Below are positions 13,518-36,884 of a DNA stretch of 64,000 nucleotides, in pieces (position 1 is the first letter of the stretch; every line of letters begins with the position of its first letter). A program made the position numbers and the translations under genes. Source of the stretch: Clostridia bacterium (GTDB lineage: Bacteria; Bacillota; Clostridia; Oscillospirales; Acutalibacteraceae); NCBI GenBank assembly GCA_017502085.1, contig JAFVVQ010000017.1, positions 26,130 through 90,129 on the forward strand. Direction: 5' to 3'. A model generated the notes under the pieces. The model saw nothing but the letters and a program-made list of their open reading frames with translations. It was not told the origin of the DNA and searched no databases.

Positions 13518-14852
13518 TCAGTATATATTATCAGCCTCTTCGGGAGTTTCTTTATTTTTCAGCATCGAAAACACATGTTTGCTTTCACGGAATGCAAACA
13601 TCGGATTGATACCCCTGAGAAGCAATCGGTTGTTTTGTCTGATCGGTCCGAAGATAAAACCGATAACAAAATTCATTATAAACTGTGTGATAAGCGACGC
13701 TGCGGCCGCTCCGCAGGCATCCCATCGGGGAATAAAAAATGCGTTGAGAACGATATTGGTCATCGCCCCCAAAAGATTGATAACCCAGAGATATTTCTGC
13801 TTCTGCTCCGCAAGAATCCAGACGTTTCTGACAACACCCATAACCGAAAAACTGTAATACCAGATAAGAATTCTCAGAACGGGAACAGCGGCAGAATATT
13901 CCGCTCCGTAGAGAACAATGATAATAAGCTCTGCCAGAACCGTAAACACAACACTCTGAGCTATCGCAAGATACTGCGTTACACAATAAAGTCTCGATAC
14001 GTTAAGACCGTATTCATCGGAATTTTGTTTTTTGTTTTCAAGAATAACAGGTCTGAAGGAATCAATAATTGCAATAAAAACAAACTGTGTCACCGAAGTG
14101 CAGGTTATTGCAGCAGAATATAACCCGTTCTGAAATTTTCCCGACATCTCAGTGAGCATAATATGGTCGGTATTCTGAAGGATGACAAGCATCATCGATG
14201 CAGTGATATAATGTTTGCTTCTGCCAAGCATTTCCTTTGCGGTGGCCAAAGAAAATGACAGTCTGCCGCCTTTTTTTATGTAAATCACTAAAAGCACTGC
14301 TGCAACAAGACCGTATTCGAGAGAAATTGAAAGCGCAAACCAATAAACACTTTTTCCGCTTGCAAGCAGAAAAACCTTATAAACCATCACTGCGGTGTAA
14401 ACGCAAAGCATAGTGATTGATGAATATTTGGACATCAGTTTATACTGAAACCAATATTGTATCATTTCAAGTGCGGCAAAAACCAGAGAAACACTGTAAA
14501 GAGCACAAACGAGAATCGTTTCTGTTTCTCCCGCATTCATTACGGATGCAAAGGCCGAAACCGCCCCCATACATGCAAGACTCGAAGCAAAATTCATCGT
14601 AAGAGAAGTACCGATAATTTTGCTCTCCATATGCGGTTTCTCAACGAGTTCATGAACGAGGGTTGCATCCATGCCAAGCTTCATAACGGGAAGCGCAAAA
14701 GCAACAACGGATGCCGCATATTTAAGCAAGCCATAGTTTTCGGGGCCAAGATATCTTGCACTGAACATACCGATAAGAAGCTGTAGCAAAGATTGCACAA
14801 CCTTACAGATAACTATCCACTTTGCATTATCAAAAATCCGCCTGTATTTCAT
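13518..14852 (-). CDS. Polysaccharide flippase (Wzx-type, MOP superfamily)
   Basis: A 444-residue protein with 12 or more hydrophobic segments. The N-terminus, WIVICKVVQSLLQLLIGMFS followed by ARYLGPENYG, is the classical start of oligosaccharide-repeat-unit flippases, which move undecaprenyl-linked units across the membrane. I prefer ATG 14852, which follows GGAGA, over the ATG at 14870, which sits in the arm of a hairpin. It pairs with the Wzy-type polymerase gene at 24108-25415. Confidence 0.9.
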   Translation of the reverse strand: MKYRRIFDNAKWIVICKVVQSLLQLLIGMFSARYLGPENYGLLKYAASVVAFALPVMKLGMDATLVHELVEKPHMESKIIGTSLTMNFASSLACMGAVSAFASVMNAGETETILVCALYSVSLVFAALEMIQYWFQYKLMSKYSSITMLCVYTAVMVYKVFLLASGKSVYWFALSISLEYGLVAAVLLVIYIKKGGRLSFSLATAKEMLGRSKHYITASMMLVILQNTDHIMLTEMSGKFQNGLYSAAITCTSVTQFVFIAIIDSFRPVILENKKQNSDEYGLNVSRLYCVTQYLAIAQSVVFTVLAELIIIVLYGAEYSAAVPVLRILIWYYSFSVMGVVRNVWILAEQKQKYLWVINLLGAMTNIVLNAFFIPRWDACGAAAASLITQFIMNFVIGFIFGPIRQNNRLLLRGINPMFAFRESKHVFSMLKNKETPEEADNIY

Positions 14853-14869
14853 AATTCTCCAAACAATCA

Positions 14870-14902
14870 TTCCGCAGTGCCACCCAAAGCAGCACTGCGG
14901 AA
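14870..14902 (-). terminator. Intercistronic hairpin, weak terminator or processing site
   Basis: A perfect 11-pair stem TTCCGCAGTGC/GCACTGCGGAA (14870-14880 and 14892-14902) with an 11-base loop lies between the giant gene and the flippase gene. It lacks a clean T-run, so it probably tunes or partly ends transcription, or protects the 3' end. Confidence 0.45.
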
Positions 14903-14916
14903 CGCTTTAAATTATC

Positions 14917-16440
14917 TTACCCGACAACTCTGCCGAGCTCATCGAACGTGTAGTTCATTTCAACGGAAAGACCGTTTGTTTCCCAGGCATAATATGTTCT
15001 GTTGACAGCAAGTAATCCGTCTTTGATGATGAAATAGTAATAACCGTCTATGTAGTTGAGACCTACTCTGCCGGGTTTACCCTTTTCATAATAGTATCTT
15101 TCGCCGTTCTTTTCAAAGAAACCGTCACGCATCTTACCGTCAGGTCCGAATTCATAATCGCCCTCGGGAAGAAGACCGTTATGCTTCCATACATTGATAG
15201 TCTTATCAACGGCAAGTTCACCGTTTGCACCGATTGCGTAATAGTAAGCACCGTTATACTCAACCAGGCCGTAGGATTCAGCCACACCGTCAATATAGAA
15301 ATAAAGAACTCCGTTCTTATCAACGATTCCGTCAAGCATTCTGCCGTCAGCTCCGAATTCATATTCACCTGCAGGAAGTATTCCGTTGCCAACGCTGACA
15401 TGCTGCTTCTTACCGACGGTCAGTTCACCGTTTGAGCCCTCAACATTGTAATACGCACCGTCGTATTCAACCAGACCCGCCTTCATCGGCTTACCGTTTT
15501 CATAATAACAAAGAACACCGTTCTTATCAACGATTCCTCTGAGCATTCTGCCGTCAGCTCCGAATTCATACTCCGCTTCGGGAAGAATTCCGTTCCCCTC
15601 CCAGACATATTTCTTCTGGGCGACAATGATTTCGCCGTTTGAGCCACCCGCGAAGTAATATTCGCCGTCAATCTCAACCAGACCTGCGGCTTTTGCCTTG
15701 CCTTTCACGTAATAGTAAAGGGTACCGTTCTTGTTTACAATACCGTCAAGCATCTTGCCGTCGGGGCCGAATTCGTAATTGCCCATCGAAAGAAGTCCGT
15801 TGGTCTCGCTGACATACTTAACGGCATTGACTGTCAATTCACCGTTTGAGCCGCTTGAGTAATAGTAATCACCGTCTATCAGCAGGAGACCCGCTCTCTT
15901 GGGCTTACCGTTTACAAAATACGTAAGAACACCGTTCTTATTTACAATACCGTCAAGCATCTTGCCGTCGGGGCCGAATTCATAGGAAGCTTCGGGAAGC
16001 AGTCCGTTTGTCTCCCATGCATACTGGACCTTGTTGGTTACAAGCTCACCTTCACCGCCTGCAAAATAATAGTATCCGTCAACATAAACCAGGCCGGCTG
16101 CCTTTGCTTTGCCGAGTTCATAATAATAGAGTGTACCGTTTTTGTTTACAATACCGTCAAGCATTCTGCCGTCGGCACCGTATTCATAGTTGGTGGCGGG
16201 AAGCAGACCGTTTGTTTCCCATGCATACTGGACTTTGTTGGTTACCAGCTTACCATCACCGCTCGCGAAATAATAATAACCGTCTTCATAAACAAGACCT
16301 GCGGCTTTGGGTCTGCCCTTATAGTAATAAATCTTTTCTCCGTCGATTTCATAAATGCCGTGAAGTGCCTTATAATCATCGCCGAAGGTGTAGACGCCCG
16401 TGGGAAGGTCGCAATGTGTTTCTGCCGCATACTCCTTACC
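14917..16440 (-). repeat. Seven tandem 204/207-bp coding repeats (wall-binding type)
   Basis: The coding repeat GPDGKMLDGIVNKNG recurs about every 204-207 bases: the matching gcat ends fall at 16164, 15960, 15753, 15546, 15339 and 15132. Each unit has DG(I)V-KNG, a YYY run, a GLV-DG-YYF segment and a (V/A)WETNGLLP segment. Copies differ by scattered substitutions, so they are older than a recent slippage event but still alike at DNA level. Confidence 0.85.
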
Positions 16441-19400
16441 CTTGACCGCCTTGCAACGGTAATCAAACAGATAATACGCTCCGTCAATCTCATGGAGACC
16501 CTCAAGCGCTATACCGTTAACAACGTAACTGAGAGAACCGTCTGCATCATTGTAGAAACCGTCAGGAATTATTTCATCCTTGCAGATGCCGTCAGTGCCA
16601 AAATCATACCACGTATAGAACTCACTGTTTGATTCCTGAACACAACGTATGCCCTCATATCGGTAACCGCCGTAGAAATAGTATCTGTTGCCATCAATAG
16701 TCAACCATCCACGCTGATGGAATGACGGACCATAATAATATCTTGTGCCGAATACACATTTTGCCCAAACGCCTGAAACGAGTCTGCCGTTTTCTTCAAA
16801 CTCATATTCGACGGCGCCAACCTTATATTTACCTTCTCTTGCGGCCTTTGTATCGGAATGGAAGTAATACCAATCCTCACCTATCAACTGCCAACCGGTA
16901 ACAAGTTCGCCGAGCTTTGCATAGCGATAAAGAGAATCTTTTTCGTCGCAGAATACACCGGTGAATTTCGTTTGTCCGACGTTGATTCCGTTCTCTCCGA
17001 AATCGTAATAATATCCGTCGACAAGCTTTATACCGGTATACTTTTCGCCGTCTGCATAATATGCAAAGCCACCACCTTCGTTCACCCAACCTTCCTTGAT
17101 TGCTTTTGAAAGCGTATATGTGTCGGTGAACGATGAATAAACAGCGCCGAACCAACCGCCTTTTTCATTTTCATCACTGGGATTAACAAAGGGATAAATA
17201 CCATAGTTCTGCTGATTTTCAGTCTTATTCGCGAAGGAGTAAAGAGCGGTTGCACGCATATAAACTTTATAGCTGACCTCTCCGCTGTGAACTGCCGCAA
17301 TTCTGTCATTCTTCCACTCGGCATCTGCTTTCGGAGTGAGCTTGATTCCGCTGAGAATGCAAAGCGGGTTAGCCATCGCGGGGTCAATCGCCTGAGTCTG
17401 GTCAATCCAGTTAAGAGTCAGAGTCAGAGTGTTTGTATCCTCGTCAAACTCTGTTGAGGTAAGTGCGAAATAATCGTTGATAACCTTCATTTCCGAATAA
17501 TCAACGTCAAATCTGCTGTCGATAACAACAGTGGGCTTGACCTGCGTAAGAACACTTACCCTTTCTGCAAGCTGCATAAGGAATGTCCATGCTGATGCAT
17601 TTTCAAGTTCTGCACCCGGCAGAAGCGATGTGAGCTCTTCGAGTTGCTCCGGAATGGGTATCTGCGTCATATCGATAGCAAACGAATAGCTTGTTTCCAT
17701 CGGTTTTTCCGGATCTATTGCTTCGTAGAGGTTATTATCCTCTGTGACGGAATTGCTGACCTCTCTGTACCAGGCAAAGGTTCTGTCTCCGCCCGTTGCC
17801 TGATCGAAATCGAATGAAAGCTCGCCCTGGTTGTAAAGTGAAATAACAACCGATGCCGTTACACTGTCATCCGCTGCAAGAGCTGCGTAAACAGTCAGAT
17901 TCTTGATACCGGTGCCATCTGTTCCGATGAAGTACGAGCCATCAATAACACCCGCATCATTGTTGCTCAACGTAAATACAACGTCATTCTCTGCAATTGT
18001 AACGGGTTTGTTCTCATAAAGCGCAATAATCGGAAGTTCTGTTTTCGCACCGTAAACAGTATCGATATTGGTCTTGGAGAAATAGATTCTGTCGGGAACA
18101 ACAACATTAAGTGTAATCGTTCCGAGAACGTCTTCACCGAGCATCAGATTCACGTCAACCGAGCCGTTTCTCAATGCGGTGAACACACCGTCGGCTGTAA
18201 CGGTACCCCACTTTTCATCAGAAACCATCCATGAAGTGCCTTCAGGAAGCGGAGCTGAATTGCCGGTTGCGCTGACACCCGAAGCGGTAAGCTGAACAGA
18301 GGCACCCTTTGTAAGATAATCAGTTTCGCTCTCTATAACAGCGTGATCGAATGCAGTTGAATTGGGAGCAGTCGAGACCATAATGAGTGACGTACTGACA
18401 GAACGTGAAGTACCGTCGGAAGGCTTGTTGACAACCTTCAGTTCATCCGTACCTTCAGGCTTTGAAACGAACGTTGTTGATCCGCCACCGTCAAGGTTGA
18501 TAGCTTCAACGCAGCCCGCTTCATACAGAATATGAGCGATTTCAACCATACTGCCGCCGCAGGAGACAGGTTCCTGTCTGCCGTCAAGCACCATAAACAC
18601 AACCTTGCCCGTTCTCGTTATGCCGATAGCCGTACGGCTGTGGCGGGTTGTGTAATAGCTTGAATCTTTGCTGATTTCAATCTCACCGTTTTTGATGAGT
18701 CTCGAGCCAAATCCGCCGACAGCTTCCTTGAGCTGACCTTTATAGATAGTGTTATACTCTTCCGTTGTGCCGATAATTGCTTTGCCGTCCTTGGTGATAC
18801 CGAAGAATCCGTTTGCACTCGGACCGTGGTACTCCTTACCGTCCATAACAAGAAGACCGCCCGGCTCACCGGTACTCATATTATAGCCGTCACCGTTGAT
18901 TGAGGCAATAACGTTATAATTTTCAACGTAATGCTCGCTTTCGGGATTGCCGTATTTTTCCTGAGCTGCGTTTGCCTGAGTAAGAACAGGTTGCATACCC
19001 CATTTGGTGGGGTCGTTATCCTTATAGTTTGCAAAAATATGAACGTCGTCTCTTGTCAGGTCAGCGGTAGCAGTGTAGAATACCATCTGCTTGTTATCCG
19101 CGGAAGTTGCGTGTTTGATATTCTGAACAATACCCGGAGCAAGATTCGAGGTTTCAGATGCAAAAACAGTGAAATAGGGGTTCGCTGTGTTTTCAACGTA
19201 GTCACCCGCAAGAGAACAGATATAATCTGCAAAGGCATAGCAACAAGCCTTTCTCAGGTCTGCAAGATTGTTTGTTTTAAACTCTCTGGTCGCCTCGAGG
19301 GTAGTTATCATTTTATTACCCGTATATGCATTATAGACGGCATTACGGATATCCTGCCTTGTGCTTACGCCGCCAAGTCTGTTCTTGAGGAAATAATCCG

Positions 19401-22400
19401 CTCTGCTCTCAAGTGTGAGTTCTTCGGTGAAATATTCCTCAAAGAGTGATGTAATAAAGAAATCGGAATAAGTTTTGCCGATAATGTTATTCATCAGATA
19501 AAGTGCATCCATGTCGGCATAAATATCCTGCTGATTGAAGCCGCCGACTTCATCGGGGTTATCCTTGAGCAGATAGTCCTCTGAAACGGTTTTAATCATT
19601 TCATCAAGGCTGCCGTCCGTTCCGCCGTAATCGGAAAATTCAATGAGGTCAACAATATCACCCGCCCAACCTGCAACGTCTGCATGGTTGCGGCTCTTTT
19701 TATTATGATATGTGATATCCATTGCACCAAACATATGGCCGAAATCAACGAGGTCGCCGTTGGGAAGTTCGAAAAGTTCAATATTCTTCATTTCGCTGAC
19801 AATGATGAACTCTTCGATGCCTTCCATCGAGTTATATTCATCCTCAACTCTGGCAACATAATCGGCGAAACCTTTATCTTCATAACCCGCCATAATGCCC
19901 CATGAACCGTCAACATAATCCTCAACACCCGTTCTGATATACTTGATAACAAGCTCTGCGGGGTCTTTGCCGGGAACCTCAGTTGCATAGGAAATTGCCA
20001 TTTCCTCAAGCAGGGCAAGATTAATCATAAAGGTTTCAAAATCAACAATACCTTCCGATTCAAGTCTCGGAATTTCAACACGGGTTGAATATGCACAGCG
20101 TGTACACTTTTCGTGAGCTTCCCAGCCGACACTTGTATAGGTGGGTGCCTTTGCGGGAACTTCAACAATGTTATGACCGAGCGCAGGAATTACCTCTTGT
20201 TCTGCAAGAACTTCGTCGCATACAGAACAATGGCTGCCGTCTGTAAGACCTTCATCCTCACAGAATGCGGGAATTCCCTCATCGATTACCGGAGTATGAC
20301 CAAGAGCCTGACCCTCGGTATAACCGCAAACCGAACAATGCGAAGCAGTTGTGCAAGTTGCCGCCACCATACTGTGGCCCATTGCAACTGACTCGGATTC
20401 AATATACTGATAGCGGCAACGGGAACAAGTATAAACGGTAATACCGTTTTCCGTACATGTTGCCGGCGTTTCTGTTTTGGAAAGTTTATGTTCAAGCATC
20501 GGAGCGATCTCTGTGCCGCACTCAGTGCAGAACTGTGCATTTGTGCAGGTTGCTCTTCTGCCCGGAGTGTGTCCCTTTGCGGGTGAAACAATTTCACCGC
20601 ACTTGAGACAAGTCTGTGCTTTATCGCAGGTTGCACTTTCCCCTGCCGTATGCCCCGTTGCATCCGCAAGCACATCTCCGCAATCCGTACATAACTGTGC
20701 CTGGGTGCAGGATGCCGCCTTGTCGGGAGTATGCCCCTTGGGTGCAGTCTGCGAATCAGTATAACTGTCTCCGCAGTTGAGACAAGTATGAACTGTATAT
20801 CCCATAGTTGAGCAGGTGGGAAGTATTGTCTGTGTTCTGTAATTATGACCCTTTGCGGGTGCGATTTCAGCAAAACACTCAGTACATATCTGATTATGCG
20901 TACAGGTTGCCGCCGCTCCCGGGGAATGACCCTTTGCGGGAAGCACGTGGCTTCCTTCCGAATATCCGCATCTTGTACAGTGACTGCCTGAACTGTAACC
21001 GTCATCAAGGCAGGTAGGCTCTACCGAATCAAGATGAACGGTTTCGTGACCGAGAGCAGCTTTGAGTTCTATGCCGCAAACGGTGCAAATCTGAGCCTCG
21101 GTGCAAGTCGCTGAAGCACCCGGAGCATGACCGTTTTCAGCTTTGATAATATCGCCGCACACGGTACATGACTGAGGCTCTGTGCAGGTAGCTTCGGCGC
21201 CCGGAGTATGTCCGTTTTCGGGAACCACTGAATCGGTATACGAGTCACCGCAAACCGTACACTTGTGAGTTGTGAAACCTTTTTCCGTACAGGTAGGTGC
21301 GGTCACCGTATGGGAATAGCTGTGACCCTTTGCATCGGAAAGCATTTCGCCGCATACGGTACAGAATGATTTTTCAGTGCATGATGGTGCTTTATCAGGT
21401 TTATGACCGAGTGCAGCAACCTCACTGTTAACGGTAACCTCTCCGCATTTCGAACAGGTATGGGTTGTATAACCTTTTTCCGTACAGGTCGGTGCGGTCA
21501 CAACGGAAACGTACTTGTGCCCGAGAGGCGCTTTGAGTTCCTTACCGCAGGTAAGACATATCTGTGCATCCGTGCAAGTTGCGTCATCGCCGTGCTTATG
21601 ACCCGTTGCGGAAATCTTCTCTGTGTAGGTGCTTCCGCAGAAACAGGTGAAGGTTCTGACACCGTCATTCTCGCAATCAGGCTGCAAAGTTACGGAAGAA
21701 CTATATTGATGAGCGGCATGATCTTTCCAAATACCGCCGTTATAAACACTTGTTGATGAAGACGCCGTCTGCTCCTTATATGTACCGTCAGCATTCTTCA
21801 GTTTTGCGGGAGTAAGTCCGATATTGGAATATCCTGTGCCCTGAACAAGCTGATAAGTTGCGGTCTGGGTGCCTTTTTTCAGTCTTGCTTCACCTTTTTC
21901 TCCACCGCAGATATCCGCTCCGCCGACAGTAGTATAAAGATAACCTTGTGATGCGTCCAGCAAACCGTCCACACGGATTTTTGCATCCTTGAGATCAGAC
22001 GCCTTGCGGTTATATTTTCTGCCCGGGGCATAAGTCAACGGAATAAACGGCTTATTATATGCGCCGCAGAAATTACCCCATTCAGCTGAATCATAAAGAT
22101 AAACATTGGTACCCGAAGCAAGAATACAGCTTCCGTTTTCGCCGATTATGATTTCGGCACCGGGAAGAAGCGAAACATCCTGAGAAAGAATTACTTTACC
22201 GCTCGCAACGTTAACTGTTATATTGCCGTTGATAGGAAGCTCATAATTTTTGGAATTGATTTTTGTTGAAAGAATGCCGGAACCGATTGAGAGCTCTATG
22301 GGACTTATCGACATTTCGCCGTTAAGCTCAAAAACCAGTCTGTCGGTATTGACGTCATAATATTTTGTGACCGTACCCGACGAAAGATTGAACATTGCTC

Positions 22401-24111
22401 CGCTTTTCGCAAAGACCTCAACACCTGCACCGAGATTCATGTTCGAAATGCACATGGTTGTATAACAGCTTTCAACCGCACCCGATTCGATGGTCAAAGG
22501 TACTTCGATATTCTGAATATAATACTGCGAAAGCGGGAAAACGCCGTTTTTCATATCAGAGGTCTGGCTTCCGCCTCTGAAGTCCATTACCTGGAAATAT
22601 TCATAAACGGATGAACCGTTTTTAGCCGTAACACTGCCTGAGCCTGTAATAAAACCGTAGGCATAAAGTGCTGCACCTCTGTTGACTGTAATACTGCTGC
22701 CCTCATGCATTTTAATGAAGCTGCAGGCACCGTCGGGTGAGCCCGTATCCGTTCTGCCGCCGACTGCCGAATAATGCTTTGCCGGCAGACTCAGAACGCC
22801 GTTAACCGTAATATGAGCGCCGGTTGACATTGTGAGTGTGCGGTATGCGGTCGGTGCGGTATGAGTTCCGCTGACGCATTCGGGAACGGTTGTATAAACA
22901 GTATGTGCATCGTCAAACGGAACAAGCAACGTTACACCCGCCGGAACCGTATAGTTGCCCGCCGGAAGCGTTGCATTGTTCATAAGAACAACCGTTTTCG
23001 ACCCTGCATTTGCGGCATAAGCCGCTGCTTCGTTAAGGTCATCGAAAAGATATTTTCCGCCGTCAACGAGAAAATACGGAGTTGAAATCTTACCGCCGAA
23101 AACAGCCTTGACGGTCATTGCCGATGCCGGTTTCAGAACGTATTCTTTGTTTGTCGAAAGAACTCTGTTGTCGAGTGCATCAACCCACGCAACAAACTCG
23201 GTACCTACGGCGGGAGTTGCAACAAGCTTTGCGCCCGACTTGAAGCTGACGCTCTTTGATGAGCCCGCAGTTACGTCGGCGCCGTCAACCGTCACCTTTC
23301 CCGATGATGAATCAAAGCTGAATACGATATCGGAATTATCAGTTGCGGGAACAAGACTGAAATTATTCAGAACAAGTGTTGCAGTTTTACCCGCATTCGC
23401 CTTGATTGTTATGGTGATGTTTTTATCGGGTTCGAGAACAACAACATATTTGCCTTTTGTTCCGCTTTCGCTGAAAGAACTGAAACCCGATGCACTGTAT
23501 TCAAACCTCAGTGTTGCCGCAGTTGAAGAATTATTATAAATATCAACCGTATTGGTCTTGGCAGAAAGTGTACTGCCCTTTGCGGTAATTGTTACGGAAT
23601 CGCCCGAAACAACACCCGTGCCGAGTGAATCAGTAACAAGAACTTTGCCGCCGAGCACACTGTTTGTACCCGCCGCCTGAAGAACGGGATTGAGTACGGA
23701 ATCGACTGTATCATAAAGAATACCGAGTGACTTTGCCGTATCAGTCGCAAAGAGCATTTCCTTTTCCTCTTCGCCAAGACCGTTCCACACGGGCTGAAGA
23801 GAATCTATATCCTCCTTTACACGGAGCATAGTTTCTTCATCCATCGCATAAACAGCGCTGACTATCTCCTCCTCCGAAAGAAATTCAGGGCCGAGATAGC
23901 GTATCATAACTTTGTTCATTTCTATCAGCGCCGACCAAAGCGGGTTACCCTGCGACAAGTCGGCAATTTCTTCAAGAATCTCCGACCCTGCAGTCTGACC
24001 CGCCTCTTTTCCCGTTTCGGGAGATGGCTGAATCGGTGCAGACGAAAGCATAACTATTACCGACATCAGCCACGATATCAGCCTTTTAAAGATGATCACT
24101 GTTGTTGTCAT
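14917..24111 (-). CDS. Giant secreted phosphodiester glycosidase (NAGPA) repeat protein
   Basis: A 3,064-residue protein. The ATG at 24111 follows GAGGAGG and overlaps the stop of the polymerase gene (ATGA). In order: hydrophobic leader (residues 1-30); beta-rich modules including a cell-surface repeat of the InlB/Flg_new kind (about 280-340) and a beta-helix-like stretch (about 400-790); a Cys/His array with about 16 CxxC units (about 797-1353); a helical domain of unknown function with DFGHMFGAMD (about 1355-1650); a NAGPA/phosphodiester glycosidase domain (about 1660-1914) ending in INLDGGGSTTF; Ig-like domains; and C-terminal Tyr/Gly-rich repeats of 68-69 residues like choline/glucan-binding repeats. 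NAGPA-type domains cleave sugars from sugar-phosphate diesters. No LPXTG: wall attachment is probably by the C-terminal repeats. Confidence 0.85.
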   Translation of the reverse strand: MTTTVIIFKRLISWLMSVIVMLSSAPIQPSPETGKEAGQTAGSEILEEIADLSQGNPLWSALIEMNKVMIRYLGPEFLSEEEIVSAVYAMDEETMLRVKEDIDSLQPVWNGLGEEEKEMLFATDTAKSLGILYDTVDSVLNPVLQAAGTNSVLGGKVLVTDSLGTGVVSGDSVTITAKGSTLSAKTNTVDIYNNSSTAATLRFEYSASGFSSFSESGTKGKYVVVLEPDKNITITIKANAGKTATLVLNNFSLVPATDNSDIVFSFDSSSGKVTVDGADVTAGSSKSVSFKSGAKLVATPAVGTEFVAWVDALDNRVLSTNKEYVLKPASAMTVKAVFGGKISTPYFLVDGGKYLFDDLNEAAAYAANAGSKTVVLMNNATLPAGNYTVPAGVTLLVPFDDAHTVYTTVPECVSGTHTAPTAYRTLTMSTGAHITVNGVLSLPAKHYSAVGGRTDTGSPDGACSFIKMHEGSSITVNRGAALYAYGFITGSGSVTAKNGSSVYEYFQVMDFRGGSQTSDMKNGVFPLSQYYIQNIEVPLTIESGAVESCYTTMCISNMNLGAGVEVFAKSGAMFNLSSGTVTKYYDVNTDRLVFELNGEMSISPIELSIGSGILSTKINSKNYELPINGNITVNVASGKVILSQDVSLLPGAEIIIGENGSCILASGTNVYLYDSAEWGNFCGAYNKPFIPLTYAPGRKYNRKASDLKDAKIRVDGLLDASQGYLYTTVGGADICGGEKGEARLKKGTQTATYQLVQGTGYSNIGLTPAKLKNADGTYKEQTASSSTSVYNGGIWKDHAAHQYSSSVTLQPDCENDGVRTFTCFCGSTYTEKISATGHKHGDDATCTDAQICLTCGKELKAPLGHKYVSVVTAPTCTEKGYTTHTCSKCGEVTVNSEVAALGHKPDKAPSCTEKSFCTVCGEMLSDAKGHSYSHTVTAPTCTEKGFTTHKCTVCGDSYTDSVVPENGHTPGAEATCTEPQSCTVCGDIIKAENGHAPGASATCTEAQICTVCGIELKAALGHETVHLDSVEPTCLDDGYSSGSHCTRCGYSEGSHVLPAKGHSPGAAATCTHNQICTECFAEIAPAKGHNYRTQTILPTCSTMGYTVHTCLNCGDSYTDSQTAPKGHTPDKAASCTQAQLCTDCGDVLADATGHTAGESATCDKAQTCLKCGEIVSPAKGHTPGRRATCTNAQFCTECGTEIAPMLEHKLSKTETPATCTENGITVYTCSRCRYQYIESESVAMGHSMVAATCTTASHCSVCGYTEGQALGHTPVIDEGIPAFCEDEGLTDGSHCSVCDEVLAEQEVIPALGHNIVEVPAKAPTYTSVGWEAHEKCTRCAYSTRVEIPRLESEGIVDFETFMINLALLEEMAISYATEVPGKDPAELVIKYIRTGVEDYVDGSWGIMAGYEDKGFADYVARVEDEYNSMEGIEEFIIVSEMKNIELFELPNGDLVDFGHMFGAMDITYHNKKSRNHADVAGWAGDIVDLIEFSDYGGTDGSLDEMIKTVSEDYLLKDNPDEVGGFNQQDIYADMDALYLMNNIIGKTYSDFFITSLFEEYFTEELTLESRADYFLKNRLGGVSTRQDIRNAVYNAYTGNKMITTLEATREFKTNNLADLRKACCYAFADYICSLAGDYVENTANPYFTVFASETSNLAPGIVQNIKHATSADNKQMVFYTATADLTRDDVHIFANYKDNDPTKWGMQPVLTQANAAQEKYGNPESEHYVENYNVIASINGDGYNMSTGEPGGLLVMDGKEYHGPSANGFFGITKDGKAIIGTTEEYNTIYKGQLKEAVGGFGSRLIKNGEIEISKDSSYYTTRHSRTAIGITRTGKVVFMVLDGRQEPVSCGGSMVEIAHILYEAGCVEAINLDGGGSTTFVSKPEGTDELKVVNKPSDGTSRSVSTSLIMVSTAPNSTAFDHAVIESETDYLTKGASVQLTASGVSATGNSAPLPEGTSWMVSDEKWGTVTADGVFTALRNGSVDVNLMLGEDVLGTITLNVVVPDRIYFSKTNIDTVYGAKTELPIIALYENKPVTIAENDVVFTLSNNDAGVIDGSYFIGTDGTGIKNLTVYAALAADDSVTASVVISLYNQGELSFDFDQATGGDRTFAWYREVSNSVTEDNNLYEAIDPEKPMETSYSFAIDMTQIPIPEQLEELTSLLPGAELENASAWTFLMQLAERVSVLTQVKPTVVIDSRFDVDYSEMKVINDYFALTSTEFDEDTNTLTLTLNWIDQTQAIDPAMANPLCILSGIKLTPKADAEWKNDRIAAVHSGEVSYKVYMRATALYSFANKTENQQNYGIYPFVNPSDENEKGGWFGAVYSSFTDTYTLSKAIKEGWVNEGGGFAYYADGEKYTGIKLVDGYYYDFGENGINVGQTKFTGVFCDEKDSLYRYAKLGELVTGWQLIGEDWYYFHSDTKAAREGKYKVGAVEYEFEENGRLVSGVWAKCVFGTRYYYGPSFHQRGWLTIDGNRYYFYGGYRYEGIRCVQESNSEFYTWYDFGTDGICKDEIIPDGFYNDADGSLSYVVNGIALEGLHEIDGAYYLFDYRCKAVKGKEYAAETHCDLPTGVYTFGDDYKALHGIYEIDGEKIYYYKGRPKAAGLVYEDGYYYFASGDGKLVTNKVQYAWETNGLLPATNYEYGADGRMLDGIVNKNGTLYYYELGKAKAAGLVYVDGYYYFAGGEGELVTNKVQYAWETNGLLPEASYEFGPDGKMLDGIVNKNGVLTYFVNGKPKRAGLLLIDGDYYYSSGSNGELTVNAVKYVSETNGLLSMGNYEFGPDGKMLDGIVNKNGTLYYYVKGKAKAAGLVEIDGEYYFAGGSNGEIIVAQKKYVWEGNGILPEAEYEFGADGRMLRGIVDKNGVLCYYENGKPMKAGLVEYDGAYYNVEGSNGELTVGKKQHVSVGNGILPAGEYEFGADGRMLDGIVDKNGVLYFYIDGVAESYGLVEYNGAYYYAIGANGELAVDKTINVWKHNGLLPEGDYEFGPDGKMRDGFFEKNGERYYYEKGKPGRVGLNYIDGYYYFIIKDGLLAVNRTYYAWETNGLSVEMNYTFDELGRVVG
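20050..21720 (-). repeat. Cys/His repeat array within the giant protein
   Basis: About 16 units alternate between a short form, such as GHTPGAEATCTEPQSCTVCG, and a longer form with TCTEKGYTTHTCSKCG. Each has a lone TC, a CxxC pair and a GH, i.e. three Cys and one His per unit. This is the ligand set of a zinc ribbon, though metal binding is inferred, not shown. Confidence 0.75.
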
Positions 24112-25415
24112 ACCGAAACCTCCTCATTTATAGATTCCGTTTCTGCCACGTTGTTTTTTGTTCTGTTTACGAACGGCAGAGCTAACGAAAAGAACGCCAT
24201 ATATGCAATTTCCGTTCTCAATGATGAATTATAAAATACCATAATAAAACACACTATTGACATTATCATCGCAATACGACAGAATAGCTGATCGGAGACT
24301 TTTTTCTTCATTCTTCTCCATGCATTGATAAATACGAGCACAAAGAATGAAAGATAAGCCATCAAACCGACATACCCCGTTTCAAGAAACAAAAATGCAC
24401 TCGAAAACCAGTTATAATTCATATAAGCATGGCTCTGATAGAATGAGCTGTTGCAAATTGCGAAAGACGAAGTATCGCAGTTGCCAAGTCCCATACCGAA
24501 AAGGCGGCTCAACGGTGTGGTCAAAATTTCACGGCTGATTATCGGAATAGCCGTAAATCTGCCCAGATCCCTTGCCGATGAATAGTTGGATGCCGTTATT
24601 GTTTTGAGTATGTTTTCTACCGTAAGCGCTCTGCTTTCACCGAAAAATATCGGAAGAAGCAGTCCTGAAACTGTCAGCAGAAGCGCCGCAACAATAATAA
24701 GCAATGCTTTTTTGAACGAAAATCGGGTCATAACCGTACAAAAAGCGAGGATGATTACAAAAAGAATAAAGAAGAATTTAAGCTCTGCCATTGCTGATAT
24801 CAGCAATGCGGTACCGCATTTTAAAAGACAAATGCCTGTTTTTTCATTTCCGAGCATAAAGTTAAGCAACGATTTGCTGAGAACAATTGCAAAGAATATG
24901 ACCGTGTATGCATTGCATCCTCTTTCGACTCCGAACAGTCCTCCCAGATAGTCCTGCCTGAGTCCCATAAAAAAGAACTGAAATGCAGTCACAATTGCAT
25001 TGAGCCAGAAAACAACGTCCATAAATCTGAGGCATCCGTTTGCTTCCTCCTCATCAAACACCATAGCAAACAGGAAAAACGCTGCAAAAAACCTGAAATT
25101 ATTCCGCAAACCCCAGAGATAATAAAACGGCGACTGGAAATTGAAAAGATATATAAATAATGTATAAAACAAAAAGACTACCGTAAAAACAGCAAACGGA
25201 GCATACTTCTTTTCAATAATCTTTCCTCTTTCCAACATAACAAGAATAACCGCAATAAAATACATCCCGTCAACGGCGTACTTGATAAGCGACGGAAAAT
25301 GAAGAAACTCCAGTAGGAAAGACATTATGAACGGAAACACAAAAATGCCGAGAGTCAGCGCCTCTTTGAATGTCCGTTTTTTTATATACAACAGTCCTGA
25401 CCTTTTTTTGAGCAT
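24108..25415 (-). CDS. O-antigen ligase/polymerase-like membrane protein (Wzy-type)
   Basis: A 435-residue protein with about 11-12 hydrophobic segments and a larger outside loop around residues 250-330 (GESRALTVENILKT; LFGMGLGNCD). This is the usual build of Wzy polymerases and O-antigen ligases, which are poorly conserved in sequence. A Wzx-type flippase (13518) in the same operon supports the polymerase role. It lies 17 bases after the GT2 gene and overlaps the giant gene by 4 bases. Confidence 0.8.
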   Translation of the reverse strand: MLKKRSGLLYIKKRTFKEALTLGIFVFPFIMSFLLEFLHFPSLIKYAVDGMYFIAVILVMLERGKIIEKKYAPFAVFTVVFLFYTLFIYLFNFQSPFYYLWGLRNNFRFFAAFFLFAMVFDEEEANGCLRFMDVVFWLNAIVTAFQFFFMGLRQDYLGGLFGVERGCNAYTVIFFAIVLSKSLLNFMLGNEKTGICLLKCGTALLISAMAELKFFFILFVIILAFCTVMTRFSFKKALLIIVAALLLTVSGLLLPIFFGESRALTVENILKTITASNYSSARDLGRFTAIPIISREILTTPLSRLFGMGLGNCDTSSFAICNSSFYQSHAYMNYNWFSSAFLFLETGYVGLMAYLSFFVLVFINAWRRMKKKVSDQLFCRIAMIMSIVCFIMVFYNSSLRTEIAYMAFFSLALPFVNRTKNNVAETESINEEVSV

Positions 25416-25432: not shown

Positions 25433-26449
25433 TTATTTTTTTGCTTTTAAATCAAGCAAAATCAGACACAAGACAAAAGCTTTGCCTTTCAAAAGTTTCC
25501 AGAAAATTGCCGAAGCTTTTGAAACCAGATTCAACGCCCCGGAGTTTATAACCGACATAAGCGTTTCATCTTTATAAAGTCGCTTGAGCAACAAACGTTT
25601 TTCATTAACAGAAGCCTTTACAGATGCTATCTGTTTAGCACCGACAAGAGCATAGTCAAGATATCTCGCCTTAAGATGATTCCTGACTTTTTCGGAATAG
25701 TTGTTTGACTCAGAAATTTCCATAATCATTTTCAGAAAAAGGTTGTTTTTTTTCTGAAAATCATTCTTGATTTCATTTGAAAGTGAATCGGAATGAATCA
25801 CGCACATATATAAATGCTCAGGGATAACCTTTGCCGATCTGACTGCTGAAAAATATTCTGTCAGGAAAACCGCATCCTCCGAAAGAAAAACTCTCTCCGA
25901 ACGAAATCTGATTTTTTCATCCTTTAGAATTTTCATTTTCAGCATTTTACCGACAACACCGAGACCGAATCCCTTTGAATGATTGCAAAGGCTTGAAAAA
26001 AGCTCTTCAAGCACTTCTGAATCTCTGTAATATAACTTATCTGTGTAAACAGTTTTTTTCGATATATCCCCGTTCGGCAAAACATCTGCTCTGGCGCAGA
26101 GAACAGTATCTGCGTCACACCCCATTGATGCCGCAACGCATTTTGTAACCGTTTCAGTCCGGATATAGTCATCACTGTCAATAAATACAACGTATTCTCC
26201 CGTTGCGACGTCAAGACCTGAATTTCTCGCAAGGCCCGCGCCTTCATTGACCTTATGAATGACCTTAAGACGTTCATCTTTTTTCGCCCACTCATCACAG
26301 ATCGCAGGACTTGAATCGACTGATCCGTCATCAACAAGAATTATTTCAATATTTTCATACGTCTGATTAACGGCAGATTCAATGCATCTGTCAAGATATT
26401 TTTCCGCATTATACACAGGAATAATTACCGAAACTCTCGGCTGACACAT
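25433..26449 (-). CDS. Glycosyltransferase family 2
   Basis: A 338-residue GT-A enzyme. VSVIIPVYNAEKYLDRCIES is the nucleotide-binding start, ILVDDGSVDSSP holds the first acidic pair, and FIDSDDYI carries the DxD that binds metal and nucleotide-sugar. The C-terminal ~60 residues have a hydrophobic segment typical of membrane-bound EPS transferases. Adds one sugar to the lipid-linked repeat unit; donor and linkage unknown. Confidence 0.9.
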   Translation of the reverse strand: MCQPRVSVIIPVYNAEKYLDRCIESAVNQTYENIEIILVDDGSVDSSPAICDEWAKKDERLKVIHKVNEGAGLARNSGLDVATGEYVVFIDSDDYIRTETVTKCVAASMGCDADTVLCARADVLPNGDISKKTVYTDKLYYRDSEVLEELFSSLCNHSKGFGLGVVGKMLKMKILKDEKIRFRSERVFLSEDAVFLTEYFSAVRSAKVIPEHLYMCVIHSDSLSNEIKNDFQKKNNLFLKMIMEISESNNYSEKVRNHLKARYLDYALVGAKQIASVKASVNEKRLLLKRLYKDETLMSVINSGALNLVSKASAIFWKLLKGKAFVLCLILLDLKAKK

Positions 26450-26464: not shown

Positions 26465-27481
26465 TTAGTCAATAAAATTTTTTATTGCCGCATTCCAGTC
26501 ATAATCAAGCACGGCAAGACGGGAACCCGGGTTTTTGCAGTTTACCGCTTCGCTGACAAGACGGTTGATTACATCTGCATTGAAAGAATCAATAAAGTGA
26601 AATCCATTTTTACCGTTGAACGACTTCATTTCGCCGAAATCTGTTGTGACAATCGGCTTGTTGCACGAAGCCGCCTCAAGGCAGGATAACGGAACATCAA
26701 TGCATCTGCCCTCTTCGACAACAGGGAAGAAATAAACGTCTGAAAGCTGATAAATTTCCTCAATATCCGGGATATAATCGTCAATCAACCTGACAGCAGG
26801 ACAAGACAAAAGTTTTTTCCTCAGTTCTTCATCCTGTTCATTTTTTGTCAAGGTGCTTGTGACAAGCAAAACAAAAAATCTGTCGGCAAGTTTTATTAAC
26901 TGCGATATATTTCTGCCCTCATTGAGATGTCCCACGTGGAGAACAACGGGCTTGTCGCAGGGAATACCGTATTTCTTTTTCAGTTCAGTTGCCTTTTCGT
27001 CAGATACGGGAATGAATTTTTCCGTATCGATGCCGAGACAGATTTTTCTGATTCTTTTTTTATTTACGGTTTTCTCCATTTTCTGCTTTGTATCCTCTGA
27101 AATCACAAAAAACTCCGCATTACAAAGCAAAAGAAAAATCTTTGCCGCAAAGCTTATTTCCGTCACCTGAGAGAGTAGAACTCTGACTTTTTTTCGTGCA
27201 AAAAATGACAAAATTAGTATTCTCAAAGCCGTTGCAGACGATCTTGCGGGAAACGGAATATAAAGGATATCATCATCGCATTTTCTGACTGCAGCTATCA
27301 TTTCTCTTGTCAGAAGAAATTTGTTTGATCTGACAAAAACATCTGTCAGGCAGGATTTACGTTCATAAGAAATAACCGTCACACCATCAAATGCTTTTTT
27401 GATTCGGCTGACAAGACTGTTTGCTACTCTGAGACATCCCTCATCAGGTGTCTCTGACAAGCAATTAGTTAATACTGTCAT
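26465..27481 (-). CDS. Glycosyltransferase, GT4-like (GT-B fold)
   Basis: A 338-residue protein. I start it at ATG 27481 after GGAAAG; a GTG 12 bases upstream is possible. The C-terminal half holds VVLHVGHLNEGRNISQL (donor-domain start) and LSCLEAASCNKPIVTTDFGE, a version of the E-x7-E region. The N-terminal half is less conserved. It stands 18 bases after the radical SAM gene in the operon. Confidence 0.8.
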   Translation of the reverse strand: MTVLTNCLSETPDEGCLRVANSLVSRIKKAFDGVTVISYERKSCLTDVFVRSNKFLLTREMIAAVRKCDDDILYIPFPARSSATALRILILSFFARKKVRVLLSQVTEISFAAKIFLLLCNAEFFVISEDTKQKMEKTVNKKRIRKICLGIDTEKFIPVSDEKATELKKKYGIPCDKPVVLHVGHLNEGRNISQLIKLADRFFVLLVTSTLTKNEQDEELRKKLLSCPAVRLIDDYIPDIEEIYQLSDVYFFPVVEEGRCIDVPLSCLEAASCNKPIVTTDFGEMKSFNGKNGFHFIDSFNADVINRLVSEAVNCKNPGSRLAVLDYDWNAAIKNFID

Positions 27482-27499
27482 TTTTATCAACACTTTCCG

Positions 27500-28582
27500 T
27501 TATTTGTTTGCCGTGCAGTTTTCACAAGTTGAACAAGCGTCAAGCTGCTCTTTCGTTACCTTTCCGTCGCGGTAATCACGGACAATTTTATTCTCATACA
27601 TTGAGTATTTCTTCTTTTTAAAGAAATGCAGAAACTTGTGCTTCACAACCCAAAATGCAGGTTTCCATATGTATTTATGCATTGCGGGGGAAACAGAGCC
27701 GATCATCCAGCAATTTCTGTCGCAACAGCGTACCTTTTTGCGTACAGCTTCAGCTTCCTGACTGTTCCACAGCTCGTCCCAGCTCTGCTCATTGAGATTT
27801 CCCATAACCTCTTTTTCTTTAGTTCCGTTACACGGCATAACATCACCGTAGGGGTCAATAAAAAATGTGTCAAAACTCATATCGCAGGGCAGAAGTCTTT
27901 TCTGACTGAAAATATAATTTATCAAGCCGTGATTAAAATATGCTCTGAACCACTTCTTGGGACTGTTTGAGTCCAGAAGACGGTTAATGAGATTCTCAAA
28001 ATTTTCCGCAACCGTCAGTCTGTCATGAATTATATTGTTCGATTCAACAAAATAGAAACTGTTATGGAGCGAAGCAGTTGCAAACTCCATATCAAGCTCG
28101 TTTGAAATCTCATAAAGCGGCACAAGGTCAGGTGCATTTCTGTCCTGCACCGTCATACCGAAGCCGACGTCTTTCATACCCATATCAACAAGGGTTTTCA
28201 GCGTTGTGTAGCCTCTGTTGAAGCCGTCATCAAGACCTCTGATTTCATTGTTTGTCTTTTCGAGACCCTCGATTGAAATTCTGATTCCGACCTGAGGAAA
28301 CTCCTTGCAGAGATCAACGATTCTGTCCGTAAAAAATCCGTTTGTGGAAATAACGATACGGTCACTTTTTTTGTAAAGCTCACGGACTATTTCCTTGAGA
28401 TCCTCTCGGATAAAAGGCTCTCCTCCCGTTATGTTGGTAAAATACATTTCAGGTAATTTACGGATTGTTTCAACCGTGATTTCTTCCTCGGGTTTTGAAG
28501 GCACCTTATATCTGTTACACATCGTGCACTTGGCATTGCAACGGTAGGTCACAATCACAGTGCCGTTAAGTTTTTTGGCCAT
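27500..28582 (-). CDS. Radical SAM/SPASM protein in the polysaccharide operon
   Basis: A 360-residue enzyme. CNAKCTMC near residue 15 binds the catalytic 4Fe-4S cluster and S-adenosylmethionine; NITGGEPFIREDL is the GGEP SAM-binding strand. The C-terminal part has the SPASM-type Cys pattern: LPCDMSF, GDVMPCNGTKEKEVMGNL, CCDRNC and CSTCENC, for extra iron-sulfur clusters. SPASM enzymes modify peptides, proteins or other substrates; some lie in cell-surface glycan clusters with unknown targets. No precursor-peptide-sized ORF adjoins it (gaps of 8 and 18 bases), so a sugar, lipid or protein target in the pathway is as likely as a peptide. It is flanked by glycosyltransferases on both sides. Confidence 0.9.
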   Translation of the reverse strand: MAKKLNGTVIVTYRCNAKCTMCNRYKVPSKPEEEITVETIRKLPEMYFTNITGGEPFIREDLKEIVRELYKKSDRIVISTNGFFTDRIVDLCKEFPQVGIRISIEGLEKTNNEIRGLDDGFNRGYTTLKTLVDMGMKDVGFGMTVQDRNAPDLVPLYEISNELDMEFATASLHNSFYFVESNNIIHDRLTVAENFENLINRLLDSNSPKKWFRAYFNHGLINYIFSQKRLLPCDMSFDTFFIDPYGDVMPCNGTKEKEVMGNLNEQSWDELWNSQEAEAVRKKVRCCDRNCWMIGSVSPAMHKYIWKPAFWVVKHKFLHFFKKKKYSMYENKIVRDYRDGKVTKEQLDACSTCENCTANK

Positions 28583-29763: not shown

Positions 29764-29766
29764 AAA

Positions 29767-30963: not shown

Positions 30964-30966
30964 AGG

Positions 30967-32112: not shown

Positions 32113-32789
32113 TATATGCCCTCCATACCAAAAACCACAGCAAAGGTTTTTATGAAAATTTTAATATCAGTAATGATGCTTCGCTCTTCAATGTATCTGA
32201 TGTCACACTTCATCCAATCATCAAACGAAACATCGTTTCTCTGCGGAGTTACTTGCCAGAAGCAGGTAAGTCCCGGCTTGACGCAAAGACGCTGCAACTG
32301 ATAATCGTTATACATTTCCACTTCTCTGGGCAGAGGAGGTCTCGGACCCACAAAGCTCATATCACCCTTTATAATATTGATAAGCTGAGGAAGCTCATCA
32401 ATACAGGATCTGCGTATAAACTTGCCGAATCTTGTGATTCTCGGGTCATTATGCATTTTGAACGCGGGTCCGTCCATCTCATTCTGCTCAAGAAGCGAAT
32501 CGAGCATAGCTTCCGCATTTGGTACCATAGACCTGAATTTATAAAATTTGAATTCTTTTCCGTTTTTGCCGACACGCTTCTGAACATAAATCGGAGAAGC
32601 GCCGGGACTGTCGATCACGATAATCACTGAAATAATCGCAAACGGAACAAGCAATATCACAAGAGCAAGAACAGCAAAAACAACGTCAAGCACCCTCTTG
32701 AAAGCCTCGTAGACAGGTTTCTCCGCTGCTTTGACCTTGATATTCAGTTGTGCGTCTCTTGTGATATTTTCTTCAGGAATCTGTACCAT
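32112..32789 (-). CDS. Undecaprenyl-phosphate sugar-phosphate transferase (initiating)
   Basis: A 225-residue short-form bacterial sugar transferase. One membrane segment (about 35-58) is followed by the catalytic domain: YKFRSMVPNAE, RSCIDELPQLINIIKGDMSF, VGPRPPLPREVEMY and KPGLTCFWQVTPQRN. These enzymes put a hexose- or bacillosamine-type sugar 1-phosphate onto undecaprenyl phosphate at the inner face of the membrane and so start the repeat unit. It lacks the long multi-span N-terminal domain of WbaP/WcaJ. Confidence 0.92.
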   Translation of the reverse strand: MVQIPEENITRDAQLNIKVKAAEKPVYEAFKRVLDVVFAVLALVILLVPFAIISVIIVIDSPGASPIYVQKRVGKNGKEFKFYKFRSMVPNAEAMLDSLLEQNEMDGPAFKMHNDPRITRFGKFIRRSCIDELPQLINIIKGDMSFVGPRPPLPREVEMYNDYQLQRLCVKPGLTCFWQVTPQRNDVSFDDWMKCDIRYIEERSIITDIKIFIKTFAVVFGMEGI

Positions 32790-35228: not shown

Positions 35229-35240
35229 ACCGTCACCTTC

Positions 35241-35984: not shown

Positions 35985-35998
35985 ATCGATTATGCACC

Positions 35999-36763: not shown

Positions 36764-36855
36764 TTGCTGTTTACTCTCCTGTAACATTCATATCGGTTGT
36801 GCAGCACCCATAATCGGGCATTGCACTGATTTTATGGTATAAAATTACATAGATA

Positions 36856-36884
36856 ATTCTATATCAAATATAATTAAAAGTCAA
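36856..36884 (-). promoter_or_regulatory. Promoter of the polysaccharide operon
   Basis: On the minus strand TTGACT (36879-36884), 17 bases, TAGAAT (36856-36861). Start expected near 36849, giving a leader of about 60-85 bases. No other convincing promoter lies between here and 12383, and gene gaps are short, so this one probably drives the 24-kb operon. Confidence 0.75.

What the first reader, a model, noticed from the sequence alone, without database searches (positions are those of the whole stretch)
14917..24111. 3,064-residue NAGPA-domain protein inside a polysaccharide operon
A secreted phosphodiester glycosidase is combined with a Cys/His array, Ig-like modules and seven wall-binding repeats, and its gene is translationally coupled to the Wzy-type polymerase. 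This hints at a surface enzyme that edits the polymer (for example removes phosphodiester-linked sugars or caps) while bound to it. The combination is unusual, and I know of no characterised example.
Basis: partly seen in the sequence, partly recalled or inferred. Interest (0 to 1): 0.7.

Follow-up and report, generated by a model that had tools for sequence, protein, structure and literature searches.

The report
TelC-NAGPA giant enzyme in polysaccharide operon
A gut bacterium makes a giant surface protein with two neighbouring enzyme domains, both predicted to cut phosphate bonds that hold sugars, and its gene sits inside the operon that builds the cell's own sugar coat, so it may be the tool that frees or trims that coat.

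Summary
In detail: a 3,064-residue, probably secreted protein (window 14917-24111, minus strand) has a clear NAGPA domain (1.6e-39), a 49-cysteine Cys/His array and seven 68-69-residue wall-binding units. Its start codon overlaps the stop of a Wzy-like gene, in a 15-gene Wzy-type polysaccharide operon. Profiles tie it to TelC, an antibacterial lipid II phosphatase: directly to structure 5UKH (E=0.0064, motifs in order) and through peptidoglycan-binding proteins. A 2025 eLife survey describes prok-TelC + NAGPA surface proteins and reads them as conflict weapons. New here: of 28 TelC-NAGPA loci, 17 have core polysaccharide-operon genes nearby (5 have none found; 6 run into contig ends), against 0 of 13 small NAGPA genes examined. 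NAGPA is the best-conserved part; no immunity-like gene adjoins it. Best reading: a wall-bound pair that cleaves sugar-1-phosphate and undecaprenyl-pyrophosphate bonds made by its own operon, releasing or trimming the polymer. Conflict toxin is the main rival. No activity was tested, and structure prediction was off.

The parts
14917..24111 (-). 3,064-aa giant protein (whole gene)
24046..24111 (-). hydrophobic N-terminus, signal-peptide-like (residues 1-22)
   Evidence: hydropathy
20095..21675 (-). Cys/His array, 15 full units and two partial end units (residues 813-1339)
19171..20094 (-). TelC-like (prok-TelC lipocone) domain, residues 1340-1647; D1456/H1459, GWAGD 1481-1485, F1525, D1529/D1533/D1535, R1570, R1578, R1589
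   Evidence: alignments A1-A5; match to 5UKH; hhalign to PGBD-type proteins; residues checked
18361..19170 (-). NAGPA phosphodiester glycosidase domain (residues 1648-1917; Pfam core 1732-1910; NLDGGGST at 1872)
17107..18360 (-). conserved linker region with one borderline Big_2 Ig-like stretch (residues 1918-2335)
14920..17106 (-). glucan/choline-type wall-binding region with 7 full C-terminal units (residues 2336-3064)
24108..25415 (-). Wzy-like polytopic membrane protein, overlaps the giant by ATGA
   Evidence: no family hit
25433..26449 (-). GT2 glycosyltransferase
26465..27493 (-). group 1 (GT4-type) glycosyltransferase
27500..28582 (-). radical SAM/SPASM protein
28591..32112 (-). three GT4-type glycosyltransferases
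32112..32789 (-). priming sugar-1-phosphate transferase (Bac_transf)
32827..33840 (-). LytR-CpsA-Psr (LCP) ligase
33837..34508 (-). small protein with two hydrophobic ends, unknown function, conserved beside LCP
34530..36787 (-). CpsB/CapC phosphatase, CpsD-type ATPase, Wzz-type chain-length protein
13518..14870 (-). Wzx-type flippase, last gene of the cluster
14868..14904 (-). terminator-like hairpin (17 pairs) between the giant and the flippase gene
36856..36884 (-). promoter-like site before the first gene, behind a terminator-like hairpin (36948-36917); consensus match only
   Evidence: 26 promoter-like sites found there, 26.2 expected by shuffles

Best explanation
The protein is an exported, wall-bound double phospho-hydrolase that belongs to the polysaccharide operon. 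The operon is predicted to make two kinds of sugar-1-phosphate bond: the undecaprenyl-PP-linked repeat or polymer (from the priming transferase onward) and, if LCP acts as elsewhere, a sugar-1-P diester to peptidoglycan. The TelC-like domain is predicted to cut the undecaprenyl-pyrophosphate end (Und-O-P); the NAGPA domain is predicted to cut the C1-O-P bond of the reducing-end sugar, on peptidoglycan or on the (pyro)phosphate left after the TelC step. Together they would release or trim the operon's polymer, setting how much stays as capsule and how much leaves as free exopolysaccharide. SHOWN (by sequence): domain identities, conserved motifs, operon position, recurrence in relatives. INFERRED: export, catalysis, substrates, order of action, effect on the polymer.
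For: (1) NAGPA at 136 bits, aligned over the NLDGGGS block with solved bacterial and mammalian NAGPA. (2) TelC-like domain: hit to TelC structure 5UKH, E=0.0064, with xDxxH, GWxGD and DxxxDxD stretches in the same order (5UKH = TelC by the structure table in PMC5555719, passage); hhalign E=9.7e-16 to a profile of PGBD-type proteins, an architecture PMC12419801 section 31 assigns to TelC. (3) Core operon genes in the DNA held at 17 of 28 TelC-NAGPA loci against 0 of 13 small NAGPA genes; 7 of 7 in the genus, in different positions relative to the operon. (4) NAGPA is the best-conserved region in 8 of 8 relatives (69-86% identity); TelC (56-83%) exceeds the Cys/His array (47-61%) and wall repeats (36-68%) in 8 of 8. 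(5) Among the operon's 15 genes only the priming transferase and LCP are recognised as making sugar-phosphate bonds (two genes have no family). (6) A 2025 review says Gram-positive polymer is 'released as EPS by an unknown mechanism' (PMC12220298 passage). (7) The mammalian enzyme is said to hydrolyse UDP-GlcNAc, a sugar-1-pyrophosphate (PMC12024695 passage).
Against: TelC targeted to the Sec pathway is toxic in S. intermedius (PMC6193138 passage), so a self-acting copy needs different specificity or restraint. At 5 of 28 loci (L045, L050, L051, L052, L056) no core operon gene was found, and 6 of 28 run into contig ends. Three of the 17 (L035, L036, L049) needed extra DNA that the controls did not get; without them it is 14 of 28 (Fisher p=0.0013); in L036 and L035 the nearest core gene is about 7 and 11 kb past the giant, with other genes between that I did not identify. 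Of the controls, L078 has a GT4-type and L087 a CpsD-type match nearby. Linked loci cluster on the tree (12 of 500 shuffles as low), so p-values overstate. The region after NAGPA is as conserved as TelC or more in 6 of 8 relatives. The direct TelC E-value is modest, a designed repeat protein (RBL4) ranked above it, and profiles A2, A3 and A4 missed TelC. No structure could be predicted.
Confidence: 0.41

Rival explanations
1. Conflict weapon: the giant displays a TelC warhead (lipid II phosphatase) plus NAGPA on the cell surface to damage neighbouring bacteria; sitting in the capsule operon only times its display with the coat.
For: Published reading of prok-TelC + NAGPA proteins (PMC12419801 section 31), which that section places among systems that usually lack an immunity protein; TelC is toxic to Gram-positive bacteria from outside the cell membrane (PMC5555719 passage); accessory regions vary in length and make-up between relatives; patchy presence, 7 of 45 genomes of the genus.
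Against: No gene lies between the giant and the flippase in the window (46 bp); in L039 and L047 that place holds an acetyltransferase-like gene (by reading). TelC is better conserved than the array and the wall repeats in 8 of 8 relatives, unlike variable toxin tips. No LXG domain was found. The operon link recurs. An immunity gene elsewhere in the genome is not excluded.
Confidence: 0.28
2. Matrix adhesin: the giant mainly binds wall and polysaccharide and glues the extracellular matrix; the enzyme domains act as binding modules or only tune cross-links.
For: About 2,490 of 3,064 residues lie outside the two enzyme domains, about 1,250 of them in the Cys/His array and the wall-binding region; likely co-expression with the polymer.
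Against: The TelC motif residues are invariant in 24 aligned sequences, as is the NLDGGGS stretch of NAGPA, which suggests catalysis.
Confidence: 0.16
3. Forager: the protein cuts phosphodiester-linked sugars of host, fungal or other bacterial glycans in the gut for nutrition, and the operon position is incidental.
For: Known NAGPA chemistry on GlcNAc-P-mannose diesters (PMC12024695 passages); the 13 small NAGPA genes examined lie away from core operon genes; L051 ends in dockerin-like motifs (regex and reading only).
Against: Recurrent operon placement (17 of 28) and the added TelC domain, which has no obvious use on host glycans.
Confidence: 0.1

Closest known systems
prok-TelC + NAGPA surface proteins of Bacillota (Burroughs, Nicastro, Aravind, eLife 2025, PMC12419801)
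   Same: Two-enzyme core TelC and NAGPA, wall-binding hairpins, Ig-like stretch, large size, variable accessory domains
   Different: They report no polysaccharide-operon linkage for it in what I read (sections 7, 12, 31 in full, otherwise passages) and infer possible conflict; here the gene is inside a Wzy-type operon, with a long Cys/His array
TelC of Streptococcus intermedius (lipid II phosphatase, 5UKH)
   Same: xDxxH, GWxGD and DxxxDxD stretches in order
   Different: T7SS/LXG-exported with TipC immunity (PMC5555719, PMC6193138 passages); here a signal-like N-terminus, fused to NAGPA, no adjacent immunity-like gene seen
NAGPA / uncovering enzyme and bacterial DUF2233 proteins (3OHG, 6PKG-type)
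   Same: Same domain, well above cut-off, shared NLDGGGS block
   Different: No TelC domain was detected in the solved ones (one search matches lie in the NAGPA part); here it sits in a giant wall protein
PGBD-fused TelC-like proteins (L123; Lactiplantibacillus and Streptantibioticus plasmids)
   Same: Homologous TelC-like domain
   Different: Other partner domains; no NAGPA seen
EpsL of lactococcal eps clusters (gene of unknown function, PMC12599335 passages)
   Same: Recalled as a NAGPA-related protein (COG4632) in an eps cluster; not tested here
   Different: No TelC domain recalled; the domain make-up was not checked

Membership tests
NAGPA (PF09992) | Profile score above the curated cut-off | tested here: met
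   136 bits vs 25
NAGPA (PF09992) | Phosphodiester glycosidase activity | not testable with these tools
   needs purified protein
prok-TelC (lipocone) | Sequence homology to TelC | tested here: met
   5UKH at E=0.0064 with profile A5, motifs collinear; not found with profiles A2, A3, A4; transitive hhalign 9.7e-16. Met but modest
prok-TelC (lipocone) | H2 His with an xD motif four positions upstream (PMC12419801 section 12) | tested here: met
   V1455 D1456 ... H1459
prok-TelC (lipocone) | H4 active Asp with a second Asp six positions on | tested here: met
   D1529 and D1535, invariant in 24
prok-TelC (lipocone) | Conserved Arg from a C-terminal helical extension | tested here: inconclusive
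   R1570, R1578, R1589 invariant in 24; helix not modelled
prok-TelC (lipocone) | Lipocone fold with clasp and cap | not testable with these tools
   structure prediction switched off
prok-TelC (lipocone) | Ca-dependent lipid II phosphatase activity | not testable with these tools
   needs assay
TelC-NAGPA surface proteins (eLife 2025) | TelC and NAGPA together with wall-binding hairpins and Ig-like domains | tested here: met
   Ig-like part borderline
TelC-NAGPA surface proteins (eLife 2025) | From spore-forming Bacillota | not tested
   sporulation genes not examined
Polymorphic toxin system | Adjacent immunity gene | tested here: not met
   46-bp gap to the flippase gene, Wzy-like gene upstream; a distant immunity gene not excluded
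Polymorphic toxin system | Toxin domain more variable than the carrier part | tested here: not met
   TelC more conserved than array and wall repeats in 8 of 8 relatives, about equal to the region after NAGPA
Wzy-dependent polysaccharide operon | Priming transferase, Wzx, chain-length/BY-kinase-type genes, GTs | tested here: met
Wzy-dependent polysaccharide operon | Wzy polymerase | tested here: inconclusive
   about 10 hydrophobic segments, no family hit

The most novel reading that the evidence does not exclude
The TelC-NAGPA pair is the missing release step of a Wzy-type Gram-positive polysaccharide pathway: TelC frees the finished chain from undecaprenyl-PP (or clears stalled carrier) and NAGPA removes the reducing-end phosphate or unhooks chains that LCP tied to peptidoglycan, so an enzyme class known as an antibacterial toxin works as a dedicated capsule-to-exopolysaccharide switch.
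Probability: 0.2. Interest if true: 0.82.

Novelty: new variant of a known kind. Interest (0 to 1): 0.57.

Why it matters
How Gram-positive Wzy-made polymers leave the lipid carrier as free exopolysaccharide is described as unknown (PMC12220298 passage). Here is a concrete, testable candidate inside such operons, built from two enzymes whose predicted bonds are those that this pathway is predicted to make. It also gives the published TelC-NAGPA proteins, so far read as possible weapons, a genomic context that points to self-polysaccharide processing, and simple experiments separate the two ideas.

Tried and rejected
Narrow profiles of the new domain found no TelC in the PDB, and Pfam, PHROGs and PADLOC had no match to the domain. 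A search for LXG toxins as a TelC yardstick in 196 genomes of the class gave 6 with a match (2 over the cut-off), none with a credible TelC-like match. A class-wide search with profile A2 found only the own genome among 291; the broader A3 in 398 genomes of the phylum gave, besides the own genome, one credible remote relative, L123, and nine hits at E 0.012-0.90. L123 led to the homologous domain in plasmid-borne PGBD-type proteins. EpsL could not be checked: no lactococcal record among those named for the 20 plasmid records that matched, and the eps record tried is not held. The idea that the radical SAM protein modifies the Cys/His array was considered and dropped: L044, L045 and L049 have arrays and no such gene was found in the DNA held, while L062 and L070 have the gene and no long array (both proteins are cut by contig ends). 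The LRR neighbour seems a separate unit behind a terminator-like hairpin. Rows dropped before counts: duplicates L055, L057, L059 (same genomes as L033, L053, L051); the second TelC-NAGPA gene of G595 and the NAGPA-only neighbours inside L044, L053 and L057 were not counted apart.

Full report
WHAT IS THERE. The reading frame at 14917-24111 lies on the minus strand and encodes 3,064 residues. It begins with a hydrophobic signal-like stretch (residues 4-22). Pfam gives NAGPA at 1732-1910 (E=1.6e-39, 136 bits, cut-off 25), Choline_bind_3 above its cut-off and a Big_2 stretch just below its own. Between residues 816 and 1345 there are 15 full units with three cysteines, in longer and shorter forms, most ending in GH, and a partial unit at each end: 49 cysteines in all. 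The C-terminus has seven full units of 68-69 residues and a partial one. The finding's description is therefore right, except that the Ig-like part is borderline.

THE OPERON. Upstream and on the same strand are genes for Wzz-type, CpsD-type, CpsB-type, a small protein with hydrophobic ends, LCP, a priming sugar-1-phosphate transferase, four GT4-type and one GT2-type glycosyltransferases, a radical SAM/SPASM protein and a Wzy-like membrane protein; downstream is a Wzx-type flippase. The Wzy-like assignment rests on position and hydropathy only. The giant's ATG overlaps the stop of the Wzy-like gene (ATGA) behind an AGGAGG. Of the relatives with a Wzy-like neighbour only L032 keeps an overlap; the others have gaps. 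A 17-pair terminator-like hairpin lies between the giant and the flippase gene; it is a consensus match, not shown to act.

A SECOND ENZYME DOMAIN. Relatives of residues 1340-1920 were sought. In 300 genomes of the family 90 had a match, most to the NAGPA part only. In genome contigs 23 loci matched almost the whole stretch at 53-84% identity; 16 of the 23 titles name a ruminant gut sample. The alignment of 24 sequences shows that the roughly 310 residues before NAGPA form a conserved domain of their own. Pfam, PHROGs and PADLOC do not know it. A 2025 survey of the lipocone superfamily describes large Bacillota proteins with Ig-like and wall-binding domains around a prok-TelC + NAGPA core (PMC12419801, section 31 read in full; sections 7 and 12 also read). 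I tested that. Published prok-TelC features that can be read from sequence are present: xD before the H2 histidine (D1456, H1459), the H4 aspartate with a second one six residues on (D1529, D1535), and invariant arginines after it. Profiles A2 and A3 did not find TelC in the PDB. A wider search found a remote relative, L123 (E=1.2e-13 in its genome; domain E 1e-16 among two reading frames), fused to a peptidoglycan-binding domain and DUF5675. Its TelC-like part matched 63 plasmid records, mostly Lactiplantibacillus, also Streptantibioticus and Streptomyces; most of the 20 listed are annotated 'glycoside hydrolase domain-containing' or 'peptidoglycan binding'. I took three (L133-L135, two of them near-identical); by annotation and reading they carry the partners that the survey names for other TelC proteins (PGBD, Rv2525c-like barrel), which I did not check by profile. 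hhalign between the window's family (A2) and these plus L123 (A4) gives probability 98.6 and E=9.7e-16. A profile of all of them (A5) then finds 5UKH at E=0.0064, with its xDxxH, GWxGD and DxxxDxD stretches in the same order as here; one unrelated designed repeat protein ranked higher, and A4 alone missed it. 5UKH is TelC by the structure table of PMC5555719 (passage). I regard membership in the TelC family as well supported by sequence; the fold could not be modelled.

DOES THE OPERON LINK RECUR? I took the window, L032-L054, L056, L060, L061 and L110: 28 non-redundant TelC-NAGPA loci. Counting a locus as linked if a Wzy, Wzx, priming transferase, LCP, Wzz or CpsB relative of the window's genes lies in the DNA held, 17 of 28 are linked (window, L032, L033, L034, L035, L036, L039, L040, L041, L044, L046, L047, L049, L054, L060, L061, L110). 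For L035, L036 and L049 this needed further DNA (L114, L113, L115), and in L036 and L035 the Wzz gene lies about 7 and 11 kb past the giant with unidentified genes between. Five have no core gene found (L045, L050, L051, L052, L056; L056 has a GT2). Six run into contig ends so that one or both sides are unseen (L037, L038, L042, L043, L048, L053). As controls, of the 40 regions fetched around the best NAGPA matches, 13 centre on small NAGPA genes (440 residues or less); 0 of 13 are linked by the same rule (one, L075, has DNA on one side only; L078 has a GT4-type and L087 a CpsD-type match, which the rule does not count). Of 22 large NAGPA proteins without the TelC domain 8 are linked. Fisher tests: 17/28 against 0/13 p=1.5e-4; without the three that had extra DNA, 14/28, p=0.0013. 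Linked loci cluster on the tree of the core (12 of 500 shuffles as low), so these values overstate. On that midpoint-rooted tree each of the three deepest branches holds linked loci (L054; L060/L061/L110; the main clade), though L054 and L060 are long rows of unsure place; one clade (L050-L052) has none. Within the genus 7 of 45 genomes carry the full core and 7 of 7 have a polysaccharide operon near: after the Wzy-like gene (window, L032, L034), upstream of the Wzz gene (L033 directly; L036, L035 further off) or in a different cluster (L110).

WHICH PART MATTERS. In 8 relatives compared, NAGPA is the best-conserved region in 8 of 8 (69-86% identity). TelC (56-83%) exceeds the Cys/His array (47-61%) and the wall repeats (36-68%) in 8 of 8, but the region after NAGPA (57-76%) equals or exceeds TelC in 6 of 8. 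The array ranges from 0 to at least 49 units among TelC-NAGPA proteins (regex), so it is an optional part.

HOW IT MAY WORK. Of the 15 operon genes only the priming transferase and LCP are recognised as making sugar-phosphate bonds; no gene for an internal phosphodiester polymer was recognised, with two genes of no known family. The bonds available are therefore undecaprenyl-PP-sugar and, if LCP acts as elsewhere (PMC7831098 and PMC12220298 passages), sugar-1-P to peptidoglycan. TelC cuts lipid II at the bond to undecaprenyl (PMC5555719 passage). NAGPA cuts GlcNAc-P-mannose diesters and is said to cut UDP-GlcNAc (PMC12024695 passages). The two predicted activities meet on the two sides of the same pyrophosphate or on the wall link. 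I infer that the protein releases or trims the operon's own polymer. This is a hypothesis; nothing was assayed.

RIVALS. The published reading is biological conflict. In its favour: TelC is toxic from outside, accessory domains vary, presence is patchy. Against: no adjacent immunity-like gene (though the survey's class of weapon usually lacks one), a TelC domain that is not the variable part, operon linkage. Self-harm is a real problem for my reading, since Sec-targeted TelC is toxic in S. intermedius (PMC6193138 passage). A matrix adhesin or a forager are less likely.

NOVELTY. Domain combination: in print since 2025. Operon linkage: I saw no mention of it for TelC-NAGPA in the sections and passages of PMC12419801 that I read (figures and supplements not seen), and the listings of my searches on NAGPA/TelC with exopolysaccharide, capsule or related words showed no other paper that treats it (open-licence papers only, listings capped). 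I therefore file it as a new variant of a known kind.

Noticed in passing
window 27500-28582 (-): The radical SAM/SPASM protein of the operon is 85-93% identical in six clusters (L032, L034, L039, L041, L046, L047) where the Wzy-like neighbour is 41-65%. In the genus a close relative (E<=1e-60) is found in 6 of 45 genomes, which are six of the seven that carry the TelC-NAGPA core. Its role in a polysaccharide operon is unexplained.
   Followed up: partly
window 14868-14904 (-): Strong terminator-like hairpin between the giant and the flippase gene, reaching the flippase start; may set their ratio.
   Followed up: no
L049, L115, L116 (G591:C161): A relative with an open frame of 7,172 residues that holds the TelC-NAGPA core, shortly after a priming transferase and a GT4-type gene.
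   Followed up: partly
L051 9689-14602: A TelC-NAGPA protein that ends in dockerin-like motifs instead of wall repeats (by reading and regex, not by profile), with no core polysaccharide gene found near it.
   Followed up: no
window 33837-34508 (-): Small protein of unknown function with hydrophobic ends that keeps its place before the LCP gene in several clusters (L033, L041, L047, L061, L066, L113, L114).
   Followed up: no
L135, after the TelC-like gene: In Streptantibioticus the next frame encodes a protein with hydrophobic segments and cysteines, which recalls the 3TM-CCDN partner in the survey; seen by reading only.
   Followed up: no
Bacillus phage SPbeta group: NAGPA-family protein (yomE in SPBc2) in SPbeta-like phages, annotated phosphodiester glycosidase family in some records; possibly a wall-polymer enzyme of the phage.
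   Followed up: no
window 36973-40554 (-): BspA-type leucine-rich-repeat surface protein just upstream of the operon; a relative also lies beside the giants in L033 and L035.
   Followed up: no
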